DNA of 64,000 bases, from positions 1-64,000 of the forward strand of contig JAGWVU010000003.1 in the NCBI GenBank assembly GCA_018970725.1. Direction: 5' to 3'. Under the pieces are notes generated by a model. It worked only from the letters and a program-made list of their open reading frames with translations, did no database searches and was not told where the DNA came from. A program made the position numbers and the translations under genes. Within the stretch, counting starts at the first letter, position 1; every line of letters begins with the position of its first letter. Shown piece after piece: positions 1 through 47,868 of the stretch. This stretch comes from Verrucomicrobiota bacterium. GTDB lineage: Bacteria > Verrucomicrobiota > Verrucomicrobiia > Verrucomicrobiales > DEV007.

Positions 1-136
1 GGGACAGGCTTCCGCCAAGGGGGACAGGCTTCCGCCAAGGGGGACAGGCTTCCGCCAAGGGGGACAGGCTTCCGCCAAGGGGGACAGGCTTCCGCCAAGG
101 GGGACAGGCTTCCGCCAAGGGGGACAGGCTTCCGCC
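1..136. repeat. 20-bp tandem repeat, about 6.8 perfect copies, cut by window edge
   Basis: The unit gggacaggcttccgccaagg is repeated six times without a mismatch, followed by a 16-base partial copy ending at 136. The array runs off the left edge, so the true copy number is unknown. The unit is not a multiple of three, contains no spacer and shows no strong internal palindrome, so it is a VNTR-type array and not a CRISPR. No gene is seen over it. Confidence 0.97.
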
Positions 137-16526: not shown

Positions 16527-16587
16527 CCGGTTCCGTCAAGCCCGGCGGTCAGGTCCGGCGCTTCGCGAGGTTCACGCCCAGAACAGC

Positions 16588-16604
16588 CATCCCGCTTAAC
16601 TGTT
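16588..16604 (-). repeat. Dispersed repeat, copy C (left outer end of transposase unit)
   Basis: Core CATCCCGCTTAACTGTT. Its reverse complement matches the downstream copy A at 18131-18147 at 16 of 17 bases. It points the opposite way to copies A, B, E and F. Confidence 0.85.
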
Positions 16605-16746
16605 TGCGACCACGAATCAGTCCACCGCAAGATCCACGCCCGCTTGCGCAAAGACGCGATTGCGGTGGTCGATGAATCCCACAAAGATCAAGTAGTCATT
16701 CCACGTTATTGTTATGTTCTCATAAGCATTTGTTACAAAGAACAGT

Positions 16747-16763
16747 TATTCCGCTTGACTGTT
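16747..16763 (-). repeat. Dispersed repeat, copy D (next to transposase start)
   Basis: Core TATTCCGCTTGACTGTT matches copy C at 14 of 17 bases, in the same orientation. It ends 15 bases before the proposed transposase start codon, so it lies in the gene's leader. Confidence 0.75.
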
Positions 16764-16778
16764 CGCTTGCCCCCCTTC

Positions 16779-17876
16779 ATGGTGGTCGTCATCATGATCG
16801 AGACCGCCGACAGACCGTTCCCCACCCACAAGCGTTTTTTGCCCGGAGGCACCTCGTCCTGGGGTGTCATGCATGCCTTCAACCGCACCGCGGGCGGGCT
16901 GTTTTTGTTCGGAGAGGCGGAGAAGGATTACTTCCGCTTCCTCGTTCACGGGGCGGCGCACTTTTGCGGGCTGGAGGTTTTGGCCTGGACCTGCCTCGAC
17001 AACCATTTCCACCTCGTCCTCAACGTCCCGAGCGAGGCCGAGGGGGCGCGGCTCCGGGGGGAGGTTTCCGAGGAGGAGATCTTTGCCCGGATGGAGAAAT
17101 GTTACTCCCAGATTTACCTGAAGGACACGAAGCAACGGATCAAGAAGTTCCGTTCGCGCCCGGGCAAGGAGCACTTGGCCGAGGACATCATCCGGCGGCT
17201 GCGGGCCCAGATGTATGATATTTCGACTTACATGCACATCGTGCAACGGCGCTTCAGCGCGTGGTTCAACGACCGCCACGATCGACGCGGCACGCTCTGG
17301 CAAGGGCGCTTCGGCAGCACCTTGGTCGAGTCCAGCGGCGAGGCGCTGCGCAAAACCGCCGCCTACATCGACCTCAACGCGGTGCGCGCCGGCATCGTCG
17401 ACGATCCCAAGGATTACCGTTGGTGCGGTTACGCCGAAGCAGAGGTAGGCCGGGCGGAGGGCGTGGCCGGGGTGGTCGCCACCGTGCGGATGGCGACGGA
17501 TTGCCCCGAGTCCGAGCCAATCTCTGCGGCCGAGGCGATCGCGTGCTATCGCGACTGGCTGGCGGAACTCGGCGCCCCGGTCATCGATGAGCACGGTGGG
17601 GTGGTCCGGCGCGGTTTTGGCGGGGCCGATGCCGCGGGTGAAAGCAAGGGCAACGGCAATCCCGGCCCGGCGGCGCGGCTGGGCACGCGGATCCGCTATT
17701 TCACCGCCAGCTTAGTGATTGGCTCCCGCGCCTTTTGCGAGGAGCATTTCCGCCGCTACCGCCACGCCTTTGGGCCCAACCGCCAAAGCGGTGCCCGCCC
17801 GCTGCGTCACGGCAACTGGGGCGGCCTCTGCGGTCTGCGCGACCTGCGCCGCAACGTGATCGGCACGCCTCGCTGA
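16779..17876 (+). CDS. Y1 (HUH) transposase, REP-associated/IS200-like
   Basis: A 365-residue single-strand transposase. The HUH metal site is His76-Phe-His78 in CLDNHFHLVL. The catalytic tyrosine is probably Tyr151 in ISTYMHIVQRRFSAWFN. The next segment, RRGTLWQGRFGSTLV, and AAYIDLNAVRAGIV are typical of REP-associated tyrosine transposases (RAYTs). These act on short genomic repeats and often exist as single domesticated copies. The C-terminal ~130 residues are Gly/Arg-rich and longer than usual. The start is uncertain: ATG 16779 or ATG 16794, neither with a strong ribosome site. Inverted and direct copies of a short repeat surround it. Confidence 0.85.
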   Translation: MVVVIMIETADRPFPTHKRFLPGGTSSWGVMHAFNRTAGGLFLFGEAEKDYFRFLVHGAAHFCGLEVLAWTCLDNHFHLVLNVPSEAEGARLRGEVSEEEIFARMEKCYSQIYLKDTKQRIKKFRSRPGKEHLAEDIIRRLRAQMYDISTYMHIVQRRFSAWFNDRHDRRGTLWQGRFGSTLVESSGEALRKTAAYIDLNAVRAGIVDDPKDYRWCGYAEAEVGRAEGVAGVVATVRMATDCPESEPISAAEAIACYRDWLAELGAPVIDEHGGVVRRGFGGADAAGESKGNGNPGPAARLGTRIRYFTASLVIGSRAFCEEHFRRYRHAFGPNRQSGARPLRHGNWGGLCGLRDLRRNVIGTPR

Positions 17877-18244
17877 CCGCCGATCCCGCGGCCGGCCGGT
17901 CGGCCAATCCGTGAGGCAGCGGGCCTCCGACAAGACACCGCCGGCAAATTCACAAGAACCGCAGGCTTCCCTCACGCCTCGGGTGAAGTGACGCGCAGAG
18001 GCATGTCACTTCCTGACGCTTTGCCGCGCCATGGCGCCCGCTTACGGTCGATGCATCCCGAGCTGAGGGCACCAGAGGCTTTGCAGCCCTTCTTCGCTTA
18101 CCGCTCAAGTGCTGCTGAGGCGCTGGTTCCAATAGTTAAGCGGGATGATTATGCCTTCCTCCCGGTCGCGTTGAGTCAGCAGTGATCGACTCAGTCCGAA
18201 CGGTGGGGGGACTGGGAGACGGTTCCAACAGTAAAGCGGGATGA
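17877..18244. other. Gene-free spacer holding two repeat copies
   Basis: 368 bases between the transposase and the sulfatase relic. Apart from repeat copies A and B, I see no coding frame with family features, no RNA gene and no clear promoter. Confidence 0.7.
18125..18158 (+). repeat. Dispersed repeat, copy A (34 bp)
   Basis: Begins GGTTCCAATAGTTAAGCGGG and ends ATTATGCCTTC. It matches copy B, 96 bases further on, at 32 of 34 positions. Confidence 0.9.
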
Positions 18245-18254
18245 TTATGCCTTC
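18221..18254 (+). repeat. Dispersed repeat, copy B, at the broken end of the sulfatase gene
   Basis: Begins GGTTCCAACAGTAAAGCGGG. The sulfatase reading frame runs straight into it, and its stop codon (TAA, minus strand) comes from the ATTATGCC part of the repeat. The repeat therefore appears to cut off the sulfatase 3' end. Confidence 0.9.
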
Positions 18255-19203
18255 TTTGCGCTTTGCGCGGGCCAGCGGACGATCCTGGGCACGCGCACGC
18301 TGCCTTCATAGACCGTGTGCTTGCCGCCCCGCAAGTTTCCGGCGAAGCCCATCGCGTCGAGCCGGGCGAATTCTGCGGCCGTGTCCGCCGGTTTCGGCTC
18401 CTTGCCGCGTAGACGGCGCGCTTCCGGATCCATGGCCGGATCGACATCGATCGGGGCGGGGCCCTGGTCGCCGGATAAGACCACGATGGTGTGGTCGCTC
18501 AGCCCGAGAGCGTCCAGCCGGTCGAGGAGGCGGCCGATATCCTCGTCCATTGAATGAAGGTCCGCGAGATAGCGGCGCAGGTGGAGATTGACGTCCCCTC
18601 CGCGCGCCTTGCAGGCGGCCAACTTCGCGCGCATCGGAGGGGCGAATTTCGATTCGTCCACGGCGAGGTCGTGGAACTTCGGCACATAACTTTTTGGAGG
18701 CGCGATCCGGTGATGCGAGATATGGCTCCAGACATTCACATAAAACGGCCTGTCCTTGTGTTGTTCGATAAACCGCATGGCCTCGTCGTAAATCCGCGCG
18801 TCCCGACCCCTCATGGTCCCGGTCATCTTGCGTCCCGGTTCGTCCACGGAGCGGACCACATCGAACCCGTAGACTCCGGCTTTTTCCTCGGGACCGATGT
18901 GTCACTTGCCGAAATGGCCGGTGGCATAGCCGCCGGCCAACGGCTGGTCATGAGTCCGGTCCGGGCCGGGCAACAGGTCACGCCGGTTGCATGGAAGCGG
19001 GTGCAGCGGGTGCCCGCCCGCGCCAGGGAATCGACGTACGGCGTCCGTGCATAAGGATGACCCTGGCAACCGAAGTCGGCGAAGCCGGAATCGTCGGCGA
19101 GAATGAAGACAAAGTTGGGGTGGGGCGCGGGACTGGAATTGCCGCCGGCGGCAAGGATCCCCGGAAGGAGGAGACCGAAGAGGAAAAGCGTCTTCGTGGC
19201 GAT
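18245..19203 (-). pseudogene. Sulfatase pseudogene (internal deletion, nonsense mutation, 3' truncation)
   Basis: Remnant of a secreted arylsulfatase-type enzyme that would have desulfated polysaccharides. The 5' part encodes a signal-like hydrophobic stretch, then NFVFILADDSGFADFG and the formylglycine motif CCPART (Cys-x-Pro-x-Arg). After TSRWPA (near 18935) the frame changes and tens of expected residues are missing. The next frame resumes at GYATGHFGK, where the expected Trp codon of the FGKWH motif is TGA (18904-18902). The rest (HIGPEEKAGVYGFD to IVRWPAQ) is in frame but is cut at 18245 by repeat copy B. No in-frame ATG/GTG exists at the 5' end; the nearest likely codon is ATC at 19203. 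It starts just past the glycoside hydrolase stop, so the two were once an operon. Confidence 0.88.
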
Positions 19204-19218
19204 GGCACCGGTCCCGCC

Positions 19219-21057
19219 TCAGGGATGCAACAGGATGGCCGCCTCGCCGTCCCGCAGTTGGATCGAGTTCACGGTCGCTTCGGTGCGGCCGTCGGCGCGC
19301 AACCGCTTCATCGGGGACGGCAGGATCAAGCGCATCCCCGGCACGGCGGAAAGGTCCGGGCCGGCCGGCGGGCGCACCAAGACCAGTCCTCTCGTGAACT
19401 CACGGGCAAAAACCGGAGTCACCGGAGCGGGGGCTCCCTCGGTGAGCCGCAGGTCATCGATCCAAGCGGTGCCGAGCGCTTCGCTGAGGCGGAAGCTGAT
19501 GCGTCCCGCCTCGTCATCCGCGGTGGTGAACGACATCTCGTGCCGGGTCCAGTCCGTGGTCCCGGTGACGGTCAGCATGGCCGCCGGCGAAGTGGTGGCT
19601 CCGGCGAAATCGTAGGGATAGACCTGGGCGCCGATCCCGCCGCGCACCGCCTCGGTCTTGATCCAGGCGCTCAAGGTGAAGGCGGTGTTCGGCTTGAGCA
19701 AAAGATGCTGGCTGTGGATCCGGATCGGTTTCGGATCCGCGCTCTCGATCCGGACGCTCGCCACTCCCTCGCGTTTGACGGCGGTGTCGAGCACGATGCC
19801 TTCCGCGACCCGCCAGTCATCGAACGAATCGAGCGAGCCGTTGCGGAGCAGGTTGGGGCCGGTGTCGGTGCCAGACCGGTCTTCCGCCTGCCAGGGGCGC
19901 ATCTCGCCCGCCGGTTGGCCGAGATCGACCCGGATGGCGTCGAACCAAAGTTCAGTGACGCGGGTGTAAGGATGCAGACCGAACCCGAAATAGGTTCCCG
20001 CCCCGTGCGCCATCAGATAGGAGGCGAGTCCATAAATCTGGTCCCGCCCGCGGTCGACCCCGGGAAGCCGGGTCCCGAAGGGAACCAACGCCGGGTCGTG
20101 GACCGGATTGTATTGCAAGAGTTGCACGTGGCCCTTGCGGTCGTGGTCCCGGGCGCGGTCGATCCGGCGCCGCCACTCGTGGGCCGGGGTGGCGAGACCG
20201 AGCCAGTTCTCGAGTTGGAACCCGTCCACCACGAGCGGATCGGCTTGCCAACCGTTGGCAACGAAGAGTTTCTCCGGTTGCCGCGCCTTGACCTTGGCAA
20301 ACAGGGACTGGAGATCGCGCGCCCAGCGGTCCGACTCCGGTCCGACCCGCGGGTATTCAGCCACGGCCGCGGTGCGTCCCGGACCGGCCACTTCGTCCGG
20401 CACGGTGTCGAAGAAGATGCCGTCCCAACCGGCCGCAACTTCCGGAGCGTGCCGGGCCGCGAGAAAATCCTGGTATCCGGCGAACCCGACATGCATCACG
20501 AAATCATCGGCCGGAGGCCCCCAATAATAGATCGGCACGCGCGCCGTCCGCCGCTCCCTGGCGCTGGCTTTGGGGTTCGCCCGGGAGCTAAATTCCGCGT
20601 CACTGAGCCGGCCGTCGCCATCGCGATCGTTCCGCGGGTCCCAACCGGGGATGGTGCGCGTCTCCCTCGGGTTCGCGGCTTCCTCCGCGCCGACGTGCAA
20701 GGTGACGGGGGTGTCGGCGGCGAAGTGGATGAAGCAGTCTTCGTAGTCGAGTTTCCTGTCGCGGCACCAGGCGCGCAGGGCCTCCGCTTTTTCCGAGGGT
20801 TCCAACAGGGTGCAGACGAGAGCGTATCGGATCGCGAGGTGTGAGGGACGCGCCTCTTTGGCCTGGAGCCGGAAGCCGAGATCGATCTTGTCCGACATCC
20901 ACGCCGCGTCCCCGCCGAAGTTCATGAAGGTGCGGACGGAGGGCAGGACGTGAGGCCGGTCGGCCGCCGCGAGTGGCGGCGAAGTCAGGGCGAGAAGCCC
21001 GAGGACCCCGCCGAGGCGGGAGAGAAAAGCAGGGAGGCGGGCCGGAATCGATCTCAT
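19219..21057 (-). CDS. Secreted putative glycoside hydrolase (GHL15-like) with EF-hand loop and C-terminal carbohydrate-binding domain
   Basis: A 612-residue exported protein. The signal peptide is followed by a TIM-barrel-like region with GFAGYQDFLAARH, GWDGIFFDTV, LFVANGW and DGFQLENWLG, the pattern of the 'putative glycoside hydrolase' GHL15-type family. A perfect calcium-binding loop, DRDGDGRLSDAE, lies at 144-155. The stretch from about 385 to 540 looks like a CBM4/9-type beta sandwich (NLLRNGSLDSFDDW, LSAWIKTEA, WTRHEMSFTT). The substrate is unknown. It was co-transcribed with the sulfatase that is now a relic. Repeat copy E lies only 13 bases upstream of its ATG and no good ribosome site remains, so expression may be impaired. 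Confidence 0.78.
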   Translation of the reverse strand: MRSIPARLPAFLSRLGGVLGLLALTSPPLAAADRPHVLPSVRTFMNFGGDAAWMSDKIDLGFRLQAKEARPSHLAIRYALVCTLLEPSEKAEALRAWCRDRKLDYEDCFIHFAADTPVTLHVGAEEAANPRETRTIPGWDPRNDRDGDGRLSDAEFSSRANPKASARERRTARVPIYYWGPPADDFVMHVGFAGYQDFLAARHAPEVAAGWDGIFFDTVPDEVAGPGRTAAVAEYPRVGPESDRWARDLQSLFAKVKARQPEKLFVANGWQADPLVVDGFQLENWLGLATPAHEWRRRIDRARDHDRKGHVQLLQYNPVHDPALVPFGTRLPGVDRGRDQIYGLASYLMAHGAGTYFGFGLHPYTRVTELWFDAIRVDLGQPAGEMRPWQAEDRSGTDTGPNLLRNGSLDSFDDWRVAEGIVLDTAVKREGVASVRIESADPKPIRIHSQHLLLKPNTAFTLSAWIKTEAVRGGIGAQVYPYDFAGATTSPAAMLTVTGTTDWTRHEMSFTTADDEAGRISFRLSEALGTAWIDDLRLTEGAPAPVTPVFAREFTRGLVLVRPPAGPDLSAVPGMRLILPSPMKRLRADGRTEATVNSIQLRDGEAAILLHP

Positions 21058-21070
21058 CGGGATTACAGTT

Positions 21071-21090
21071 CAGTTAAGCGGGATGATTAT
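21071..21090 (+). repeat. Dispersed repeat, copy E
   Basis: CAGTTAAGCGGGATGATTAT, identical to the shared core of copy A over AGTTAAGCGGGATGATTAT. Same orientation as A and B. It lies immediately upstream of the glycoside hydrolase start. Confidence 0.9.
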
Positions 21091-21123
21091 TTCGGCCTTG
21101 CGGAGGGGCTCCGCCTTTAACCT

Positions 21124-21142
21124 TCAAGCGGGTGCATTATTG
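21124..21142 (+). repeat. Dispersed repeat, degenerate copy F
   Basis: TCAAGCGGGTGCATTATTG keeps the AAGCGGG core and ATTATT tail with several mismatches. It lies about 50 bases past copy E in the same orientation. Confidence 0.5.
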
Positions 21143-21347
21143 GGGGCAGCCAAAACAGCCGGGAGCGGTTTGGGGATGACGAGATTGATCCAGCTGTAGG
21201 CAGGAGGCACGCGATCCGTCATAGCCGGGACGACTGTGTTACGAAGAGGTGAAACGAGGCGTCTTGGGCACGCAAATCTGTTGCGACGGCGCCTTTACAT
21301 CCTTTCTGGTCTGGAGTCAATGAGTTCTGCCTTTGGGTGGAGGTCGC

Positions 21348-45955: not shown

Positions 45956-47868
45956 TGAGGAAGACGCTCGCGTGGATTTTGCAGGGGCTCTGGCTGGGAA
46001 CGGTCATGGCGGAGGAGCCGCGTTTGTCCGGCTCGTGGGGGGATTTGCATGGGGAACCCTTGGTGCCGGCGGCACTCGGCCTGTGGACGGACCTGACCGG
46101 GGCGGCGTGGAATGTGCAGGACCACGGGGTTTTGGGCAGGATCGGTGCCGGGATGATGAACGCCGGGGAAGCCCTGGTCATCGGTGAGGAGGCCTTTGTC
46201 TGCGACAGCCCCCTCATGACCCGGGACGGAGACGAGTGGGTTTTCCCGGCCAACCACCTCTTGCAAGGCTTGGCGGTGACCCGGCGGGTCCGGTTGGATC
46301 GCCAGTCTGGAACGGTGCGCTACCTCGAAGCGCTGCGCAATCCCACGGCCCAAGGAGTGACCGTGACGGTGGAATTGCGCACTCAATACAACGGAAACAT
46401 CGGCGAGTGGCGCAGTGATCGCGGCACCTTGTCGCCTCTGAAACTTGGGGACGATGAGGAGGGGATCGTGGTGCAACCGGGTTCGGCCGGGCACGACCGG
46501 CTTCTCGTCTACTCCCTGTGCCAGCGCGGCGGGGTTTCGCGGCCCGCTTTGGCGACCCCGAGCCGGTTCTCCTTCCATGTGCGGTATGAGGTCGGCGTGC
46601 CGCCCGGGGAGACGGTTTTCCTGCTTCACGGGTTGGCGCAGAGACCTCCCGGGAGCCCGCCCCGTCCCGACATGGCGGTGTGGGCCGGGCAACTTCCCGA
46701 CAGCGAGCGGGAGCGGGTGGCGAACCTGCCTTCCCCGCAGTTGGACGATGCCAGATCCCGGCTCATCGCCGCGGTGCGCGCGGAACTGGGGGAGATCCCC
46801 CCGGAAGACACCCTCTTCCTTCCGGGCCGGACGCGTCTTCCGGGAAAGCTCAAGGCTGGGCCTTTCACGTTGGCGACGCTCGCAGGGGAAAGAACCTGGA
46901 AGCCCGGGGAGGCGGTTGCTCTGGAGGTGGGGGCCGATGGCACGGGTCGCATTTTCCTTGGGAACGGCGAGGTTTGGCGGGGTGCTCTCAAAAAGTGCGA
47001 CGCCGTTTTCGTGCCCTCGTCAGGCACCGGGGAGATTGCGCTGAACGGTAGTCGTGAGCTCCGTTGGGTGCGGGGCGGGGGGGCGGAGATGAACCAATGG
47101 CCGGAGGGAATCGAAGGGTATCTGGAAACCCAGGACGGACAGCGCTTCGCCTTGGTCTCGCTCGGTGCAAACAAGGTTTCTTTCAACGGTCGCTGGGGGA
47201 ATTGGAATGGAACGCTCGACCAGGTGGATGAGTTCGTGTGGGTCGACGGAGATCCCTGGCTCAACCGGCGCGACGGTGCGCGGCTCAGGGCCTTTCCTGC
47301 GGACGCATCGTGGACGGTGAACTTGAAAACCGGCGGGTCGGTGAGTCTGCCGTTGAACCGGGTGCGGAGGATGGTTCACCGGATGGCCGGGATCCCTTCC
47401 GGATCGGTCGTGGCCCGGTTGCTGGACGGGGAGCGTCTGGTGGGCGGGTGGACGGACGTGGATCTCGAGGTCCAGGGCGTGTCCATCAAGGCGTCCGCAG
47501 TCCGGCTGTTGCGTCGTGTGGAAGGCGATCGCGTGACCGTCTCGCTTTGGGATGGAGGGGAGATCACCGGTCCATTGGCCGGCGGTGGCGTGTCGCTGGT
47601 TTCGGGGGGCGCCGGGGTGCGGATCGGTCTGCCGGAGCTGGAGCGGGTGGTTTCCAGTGGCCCGGAACTCGGAGCGGAGGAACGCACCCGGATCGTGGAT
47701 GGGATCGCACGGTTGGGTGATCCTCAATGGGAGAAAAGGGAGGAGGCGACCCGTTGGCTGGCGGGGTTGGGAATCCGGGCCCGCGCGGAATTGGCGGCGG
47801 CCTTGGCCGCGGGGAATCATGAGCCGGAGGTCCGGCATCGTTTGCAATGTCTCTTGACCGAACCATGA
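45952..47868 (+). CDS. Secreted beta-repeat protein with HEAT-like tail, paralogue of the previous gene
   Basis: 638 residues: signal peptide (AWILQGLWLGTVMA), the beta domain shared with the upstream protein, then several short beta repeats of the 'L-x-D/G-G-x-x-x-x-G' kind (e.g. VSLWDGGEITGPLAGGGVSL, LDGERLVGGWTDVDLEVQGV). It ends in a HEAT-like helix pair (LGDPQWEKREEATRWLAGLG, AELAAALAAGNHEPEVRHRL) common in secreted Planctomycete/Verrucomicrobial proteins. No enzyme motif is visible. Overlaps the metallophosphoesterase gene as ATGA. Confidence 0.72.
   Translation: MMRKTLAWILQGLWLGTVMAEEPRLSGSWGDLHGEPLVPAALGLWTDLTGAAWNVQDHGVLGRIGAGMMNAGEALVIGEEAFVCDSPLMTRDGDEWVFPANHLLQGLAVTRRVRLDRQSGTVRYLEALRNPTAQGVTVTVELRTQYNGNIGEWRSDRGTLSPLKLGDDEEGIVVQPGSAGHDRLLVYSLCQRGGVSRPALATPSRFSFHVRYEVGVPPGETVFLLHGLAQRPPGSPPRPDMAVWAGQLPDSERERVANLPSPQLDDARSRLIAAVRAELGEIPPEDTLFLPGRTRLPGKLKAGPFTLATLAGERTWKPGEAVALEVGADGTGRIFLGNGEVWRGALKKCDAVFVPSSGTGEIALNGSRELRWVRGGGAEMNQWPEGIEGYLETQDGQRFALVSLGANKVSFNGRWGNWNGTLDQVDEFVWVDGDPWLNRRDGARLRAFPADASWTVNLKTGGSVSLPLNRVRRMVHRMAGIPSGSVVARLLDGERLVGGWTDVDLEVQGVSIKASAVRLLRRVEGDRVTVSLWDGGEITGPLAGGGVSLVSGGAGVRIGLPELERVVSSGPELGAEERTRIVDGIARLGDPQWEKREEATRWLAGLGIRARAELAAALAAGNHEPEVRHRLQCLLTEP

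What the first reader, a model, noticed from the sequence alone, without database searches (positions are those of the whole stretch)
16588..21142. Short repeat family around a single Y1 transposase
At least five copies (one degenerate copy more) of a 17-34-bp sequence lie within 4.5 kb of one HUH transposase gene. Copies C and D, left of the gene, point one way; A, B, E and F, right of it, point the other. C and A make inverted ends with 16 of 17 matches. This resembles a RAYT/REP system, but the unit shows no obvious internal hairpin, which REP elements usually have. It could be a distinct repeat family that this enzyme recognises.
Basis: partly seen in the sequence, partly recalled or inferred. 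Interest (0 to 1): 0.65.

Follow-up and report, generated by a model that had tools for sequence, protein, structure and literature searches.

The report
Transposon ends scattered as extragenic hairpins
A small single-strand-DNA transposase gene in a Verrucomicrobiales bacterium is bounded by short inverted hairpin sequences, and dozens of loose copies of that end sequence are scattered between genes only in its genus, which looks like a selfish element turning its own ends into a genome-wide repeat family.

Summary
Five good copies and one degenerate copy lie at 16580-21143, left copies on the minus strand and right copies on the plus strand. The copies that act as ends are D (16740-16764) and A (18129-18155), which bound a 1.4-kb element. 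C, B, E and F are extra copies. In a sister genome the same element is multi-copy (94-97% identical 5' ends), bounded by this repeat with unrelated flanks. The repeat occurs 61, 44 and 15 times in the three genomes of the genus (reversed-pattern control 0) and 0-3 times in 54 other relatives. An exact 15-mer is absent from 286 other genomes of the order. Copies avoid genes. The enzyme is a Y1 HUH transposase whose best structural match is TnpA-REP. Best filing: a TIR-associated tyrosine transposase (TIRYT/TIRtron) with a REP-like dispersed family that lacks GTAG. By architecture it resembles TnpAY1 subclass 2.3, for which no REP-like sequences had been reported. New variant of a known kind.

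The parts
16740..16764 (-).
   Evidence: Fold z -4.0; same position as the left end of 9 copies in sister genome G001; matrix 32.0 bits
16779..17876 (+). Y1 HUH transposase gene (open frame from 16644; conserved start probably ATG at 16794); H81-F-H83 and Y201 numbered from a frame beginning at 16764
   Evidence: NF047646 REP_Tyr_transpos 47.3 bits, below its cut-off of 80; PF01797 22.3, cut-off 23; catalytic residues invariant in 28 aligned sequences; best PDB match 4er8 TnpA-REP
18129..18155 (+). Right end of the element (copy A), about 260 bp after the stop codon
   Evidence: counterpart of the right end in G001 copies
18225..18251 (+). Second right-end copy (B), in tandem 96 bp further out
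   Evidence: tandem right ends also in G001 copies
16580..16606 (-). Second left-side copy (C), about 160 bp outside the left end
   Evidence: strings of left-end copies upstream of the gene also at C5 and in G002
21067..21093 (+). Solo copy (E), just upstream of the start codon of the GHL15-family gene 19219-21057(-)
   Evidence: gene
21117..21143 (+). Degenerate solo copy (F)
   Evidence: Matrix 9.8 bits against at most 6 in shuffled windows
46609..46635 (-).
   Evidence: Matrix 14.7 bits

Best explanation
The unit 16740-18155 is a small mobile element: a Y1 (HUH, single-tyrosine) transposase gene between two inverted ends, each end an imperfect palindrome with loop AAGC[G/A]GGAT. SHOWN: the anatomy; multi-copy spread of the same element with unrelated flanks in a sister genome; a dispersed extragenic family of the end sequence limited to genomes with this transposase lineage; a predicted fold closest to TnpA-REP. 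INFERRED: the enzyme recognises the end hairpin on single-stranded DNA (probably the lagging-strand template), cuts through a Y201 phosphotyrosine link and rejoins; by acting in trans on one end alone it seeds solo ends between genes, as TnpA-REP is thought to do for REPs. Tandem ends and the 38/39-bp and 73/74-bp arrays then arise by repeated insertion or slippage, and solo copies decay by losing stem pairing.
For: Boundaries: nine left ends in G001 share CAACAATCATCCCGCTTGACTGTTC (minor variants) up to the gene and diverge at once outside; right ends share CAACAGTCAAGCGGGATGATTGTTGTTT (minor variants) and then diverge. 5' ends of G001 copies are mostly 94-97% identical, i.e. recent spread. 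Genome counts 61/44/15 in the genus with reversed-pattern controls 0, 0-3 elsewhere; exact 15-mer 9/31/1 and 0 in 286 others. G002 has three contig-edge transposase fragments at 71-72% identity, each next to the repeat. Extragenic: 3/53, 1/20, 3/44 copies in predicted coding sequence against 87/79/83% of random positions. Most G000 copies are solo: 49 solo, 18 in arrays, 6 with element context. Co-divergence: the 67% relative at C36 has its own variant AAGCAGGTTGATTGTT, 24 matches within 2 mismatches, control 0. HUH and Tyr invariant; 4er8 E 1.3e-5. Hairpins: z -2.6, -4.0, -4.0 for sequences from G001, window and G002.
Against: No compensatory base changes beyond column shuffles, so the palindrome could be a double-strand binding site. 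No exact empty site was recovered: in three orthologous neighbourhoods the sister genomes lack the repeat, but intergenic DNA does not align. Both sequence profiles score below their cut-offs. Many copies sit at contig edges, so full copy numbers are unknown.
Confidence: 0.8

Rival explanations
1. The solo copies are not mobilised by themselves: they are the last recognisable ends of full elements that decayed or were deleted.
For: In G001 26 of 45 copies still have element-internal sequence next to them; a left end with only about 17 bp of element-internal sequence beside it lies at C2.
Against: In G000 49 copies have no similarity to element-internal sequence while full elements are few; solo copies keep the core sharply while flanks are unrelated.
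Confidence: 0.3
2. A canonical RAYT/REP system.
For: Same fold, extragenic dispersed palindromes flanking the gene.
Against: No GT[AG]G tetranucleotide at the foot of the hairpin in the copies listed; a canonical GTAG-REP system is present separately in the same genome (C94); the enzyme is 360-370 aa with 118 residues between HUH and Tyr rather than the short RAYT form.
Confidence: 0.08
3. An IS200/IS605-type insertion sequence with ordinary subterminal hairpins.
For: Y1 catalytic core, weak matches to IS608/ISDra2 structures, multi-copy elements.
Against: Ends are inverted rather than same-strand hairpins; PF01797 below cut-off; dozens of solo ends; best fold match is TnpA-REP.
Confidence: 0.07
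4. The repeat is a host regulatory or terminator site that the transposon happens to carry.
For: Extragenic location; copy E sits directly upstream of a gene; the left end lies at the transposase start.
Against: Limited to one genus with this lineage, clear element boundaries, sister variant for sister enzyme; no promoter- or terminator-like consensus found around the element; position not conserved next to orthologous genes.
Confidence: 0.05

Closest known systems
TIRYT / TIRtron (TIR-associated tyrosine transposases, Di Nocera et al. 2013, PMC3733652)
   Same: Tyrosine transposase gene flanked by terminal inverted repeats instead of GTAG REPs; in some genomes TIRs form dispersed families, single, paired or grouped; some TIRs self-complementary
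   Different: TIR sequence unrelated to the GGGGWSAS consensus (which this genome also has, at C68 and probably in the window array 1-136); conserved loop; tandem arrays of the end; this Verrucomicrobiales genus was not among the examples read
TnpAY1 subclass 2.3 (Quentin et al. 2018, PMC6006769)
   Same: Length (median 325 aa), long HUH-Tyr distance (median 110), insertion between beta3 and alphaC, long C-terminal tail
   Different: The paper found no REP-like structures flanking 2.3 genes and no high identity between copies in a genome; here both are present. Their profiles could not be run here
RAYT / TnpA-REP with REP and REPIN
   Same: Fold, extragenic dispersed palindromes flanking the gene in inverted orientation, family specific to its enzyme
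   Different: No GT[AG]G foot; enzyme about twice as long; element copied as a whole in the sister genome
TnpAY1 subclass 2.6 (Bacteroidetes)
   Same: Flanked by atypical secondary structures with copies elsewhere in the genome
   Different: Other phylum; shorter HUH-Tyr distance (median 82)

Membership tests
Y1 HUH transposase superfamily | HUH and a single catalytic tyrosine | tested here: met
   N80 H81 H83 and Y201 invariant in 28 aligned sequences
Y1 HUH transposase superfamily | TnpA fold | tested here: met
   AlphaFold2 pLDDT 81; 4er8 E 1.3e-5, prob 1.00; ISDra2 and IS608 follow
TIRYT/TIRtron | Gene flanked by terminal inverted repeats, not GTAG REPs | tested here: met
   Inverted pair of score 21.5 spanning the G001 gene, control maximum 16.5; window pair D/A
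TIRYT/TIRtron | GGGGWSAS motif in the TIR (many members, not all) | tested here: not met
   End is AAGCGGGATGATTGTT; related genes carry AGGGACAGGC instead
TIRYT/TIRtron | Dispersed family of the TIR in the genome (some members) | tested here: met
   61/44/15 copies
RAYT/REP | GT[AG]G at the foot of the hairpin | tested here: not met
   No shared GTAG/GTGG upstream of the stem in the listed copies
RAYT/REP | Extragenic location | tested here: met
   3/53, 1/20, 3/44 in predicted coding sequence against 79-87% of random positions
RAYT/REP | Hairpin-forming unit | tested here: inconclusive
   Intact ends fold; pairing 0.73 against 0.24-0.57 for slid versions but no covariation
RAYT/REP | NCBIfam REP_Tyr_transpos cut-off | tested here: not met
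   47.3 bits against 80
IS200/IS605 | Same-strand subterminal hairpins, non-inverted ends | tested here: not met
   Ends are inverted copies
TnpAY1 subclass 2.3 | HUH-Tyr spacing, beta3-alphaC insertion, long C-terminus | tested here: met
   118 residues; helices 91-148 between strand 81-89 and helix 153-172; about 150 further residues
TnpAY1 subclass 2.3 | Match to the published subclass profile / tree position | not testable with these tools
All above | Hairpin binding, cleavage and joining | not testable with these tools
   Needs biochemistry

The most novel reading that the evidence does not exclude
This genus shows the birth of a REP-like family from a transposon: in G001 the element is young and multi-copy with most repeats still attached to it, while in G000 few full elements remain and about 50 detached ends persist between genes. 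It would be a second, GTAG-independent route to REP families, run by subclass-2.3-type enzymes that recognise a conserved loop, with each enzyme lineage carrying its own end variant.
Probability: 0.4. Interest if true: 0.6.

Novelty: new variant of a known kind. Interest (0 to 1): 0.42.

Why it matters
How REP families start is open: from general knowledge, RAYTs are mostly single-copy and immobile, so the transposon-to-repeat step is rarely visible. Here whole, recently copied elements, loose ends and tandem arrays of the same end coexist in three sister genomes, and a 67%-identical enzyme has its own end variant. That makes the order of events testable. It would also give a REP-like repeat to an enzyme class (2.3-like) for which none was reported.

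Tried and rejected
Covariation of the stem: pairing exceeds slid versions, but not column shuffles, so no claim that the hairpin is maintained by selection. Generic search for inverted ends around 46 related genes: only a shared AGGGACAGG-type motif in some, otherwise noise. Promoter and terminator consensus around the element: none; the TTGACT inside the left end is therefore only a remark. Single-sequence PDB search: no hit; the profile found ISDra2 weakly. Shared insertion positions between species: none among the loci compared. Exact empty sites: not obtained because intergenic DNA does not align and most full copies are cut by contig ends. A GAGAA-like target left of the G001 ends looks frequent by eye but there are too few cases to claim it.

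Full report
OBSERVATION. The repeat is real and not chance. C (16580-16606) and D (16739-16765) lie left of the transposase on the minus strand; A (18129-18155), B (18225-18251), E (21067-21093) and F (21117-21143, weak) lie right of it on the plus strand. A seventh, diverged copy is at 46609-46635.

GENOME DISTRIBUTION. The core AAGCRGGATRAYNRT occurs 61 times in the window's genome (4.9 Mb), 44 and 15 times in the two other genomes of the genus, with 0 matches for the reversed control in all three. It occurs 0-3 times in each of 54 other relatives, many of which carry distant relatives (about 33-44% identity) of the transposase. The exact 15-mer AGTCAAGCGGGATGA is found in those three genomes (9, 31, 1) and in none of 286 others of the order. 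All three carry the transposase lineage: G001 with many copies at about 75-87% identity, G002 with three contig-edge fragments of 71-72% identity, each within about 45 bp of a copy of the repeat.

ELEMENT BOUNDARIES. In G001, nine copies with a left end share CAACAATCATCCCGCTTGACTGTTC (with minor variants), a short spacer and the gene, and are unrelated immediately outside. Right ends mostly share about 220-290 bp after the stop codon, finish in CAACAGTCAAGCGGGATGATTGTTGTTT or a close variant, and are then unrelated; one copy (L079) is truncated inside this stretch. Their 5' ends are mostly 94-97% identical. The window element fits this layout with D as left end and A as right end (1.4 kb). 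Extra end copies beside an end recur in all three genomes: tandem right ends at G001 C86 and C107, tandem left ends at C63 and C107, strings of left ends at G000 C5 and in G002. Longer arrays are C13/C99 (38/39-bp unit, at least 19 copies, cut by contig ends) and C12 and C28 (73/74-bp unit).

HAIRPIN. The matrix consensus is CGAACAGTC AAGCGGGAT GATTGTTGT. As single-stranded DNA the G001 right end (-4.5 kcal/mol, z -2.6), the window left end D (-3.9, z -4.0) and a G002 copy (-6.5, z -4.0) fold into one stem-loop. Copy C folds weakly (z -0.8); copy A and a G000 solo copy do not. Across 108 distinct copies the seven stem pairs are formed in 73% of cases against 24-57% for slid registers, 90% in G001, but not more often than column shuffles predict. 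The palindrome is thus a property of the consensus and of several element ends; conservation by compensation is not shown.

LOCATION. With a codon-usage gene caller trained on the window, 3 of 53 (G000), 1 of 20 (G002) and 3 of 44 (G001) copies fall in predicted coding sequence, against 87, 79 and 83% of random positions in the same loci. In G000 49 copies have no element-internal sequence next to them, 18 are in the C13/C99 arrays and 6 have such context; in G001 26 of 45 do. In three orthologous neighbourhoods the sister genomes lack the repeat; in a fourth both have one at different positions.

ENZYME. Numbered from 16764 the frame is 370 residues (probable start ATG 16794). H81-F-H83 and Y201 are invariant among 28 aligned sequences. 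Profile scores are below both cut-offs, but the AlphaFold2 model (pLDDT 81) matches TnpA-REP bound to a REP hairpin (4er8, E 1.3e-5) ahead of ISDra2 and IS608. The 118-residue HUH-Tyr spacing, the helical insertion between beta3 and alphaC and the long C-terminus fit TnpAY1 subclass 2.3 of Quentin et al. 2018 (PMC6006769), which reported no REP-like structure beside 2.3 genes.

CO-DIVERGENCE. The 67% relative at C36 has tandem left ends with AAGCAGGTTGATTGTT; 24 matches within 2 mismatches exist in the genome, control 0, though a few of them belong to the main family. The 39% relative at C68 lies beside an array of GGACGGGGACAGGGTTT units containing GGGGACAG, which fits the TIRYT consensus GGGGWSAS. 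Related genes elsewhere have AGGGACAGG outward-reading motifs enriched in their flanks.

FILING. By what it works like, and by the defining feature of inverted ends without GTAG, this is a TIRtron (Di Nocera et al. 2013, PMC3733652). It is not a REPtron. It differs from described TIRtrons in end sequence, in the probable enzyme subclass, and in showing young multi-copy elements, loose ends and arrays together. Activity of the window copy is not shown; its gene and ends are intact in sequence.

Noticed in passing
window 1-136: Perfect tandem array of GGGACAGGCTTCCGCCAAGG (6.8 copies) at the contig edge; contains the GGGACAGGC motif seen beside related tyrosine transposases, so probably an end array of another TIRYT lineage.
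   Followed up: partly
window 18245-19216 (-): Sulfatase pseudogene: frameshifted and with a stop in the GKWHxG-like motif (GK*HIG); element copies B and A lie just beyond its 3' end.
   Followed up: partly
L040 1-432 and L063 end (G000 C13 start, C99 end): 38/39-bp tandem array of the repeat, at least 19 copies; the two contig ends may join through it.
   Followed up: partly
L196 1450-2500 (G000 C94:8750-9800): Canonical GTAG-REP RAYT gene flanked by GTAGGTTAGGCATTCCTGCC-type REPs, with the AAGCGGGATGA motif just outside them.
   Followed up: partly
L043 516-640, L044 525-635, L053 558-670: About 125-bp MITE-like unit with the motif at both ends facing inward, around the palindromes ACAGCCGTCCCGGCTGT and GCGGGCGTCCCGC; next to GTAG REPs in at least two loci.
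   Followed up: no
L222 130-180 (G001 C119): Head-to-head pair of the repeat separated by a few bases, like a very short REPIN.
   Followed up: no
L074-L080 (records CAMCXS01): The sister genome is labelled Akkermansia muciniphila in its record title, which does not fit a genome of about 6.5 Mb placed in the window's genus.
   Followed up: no
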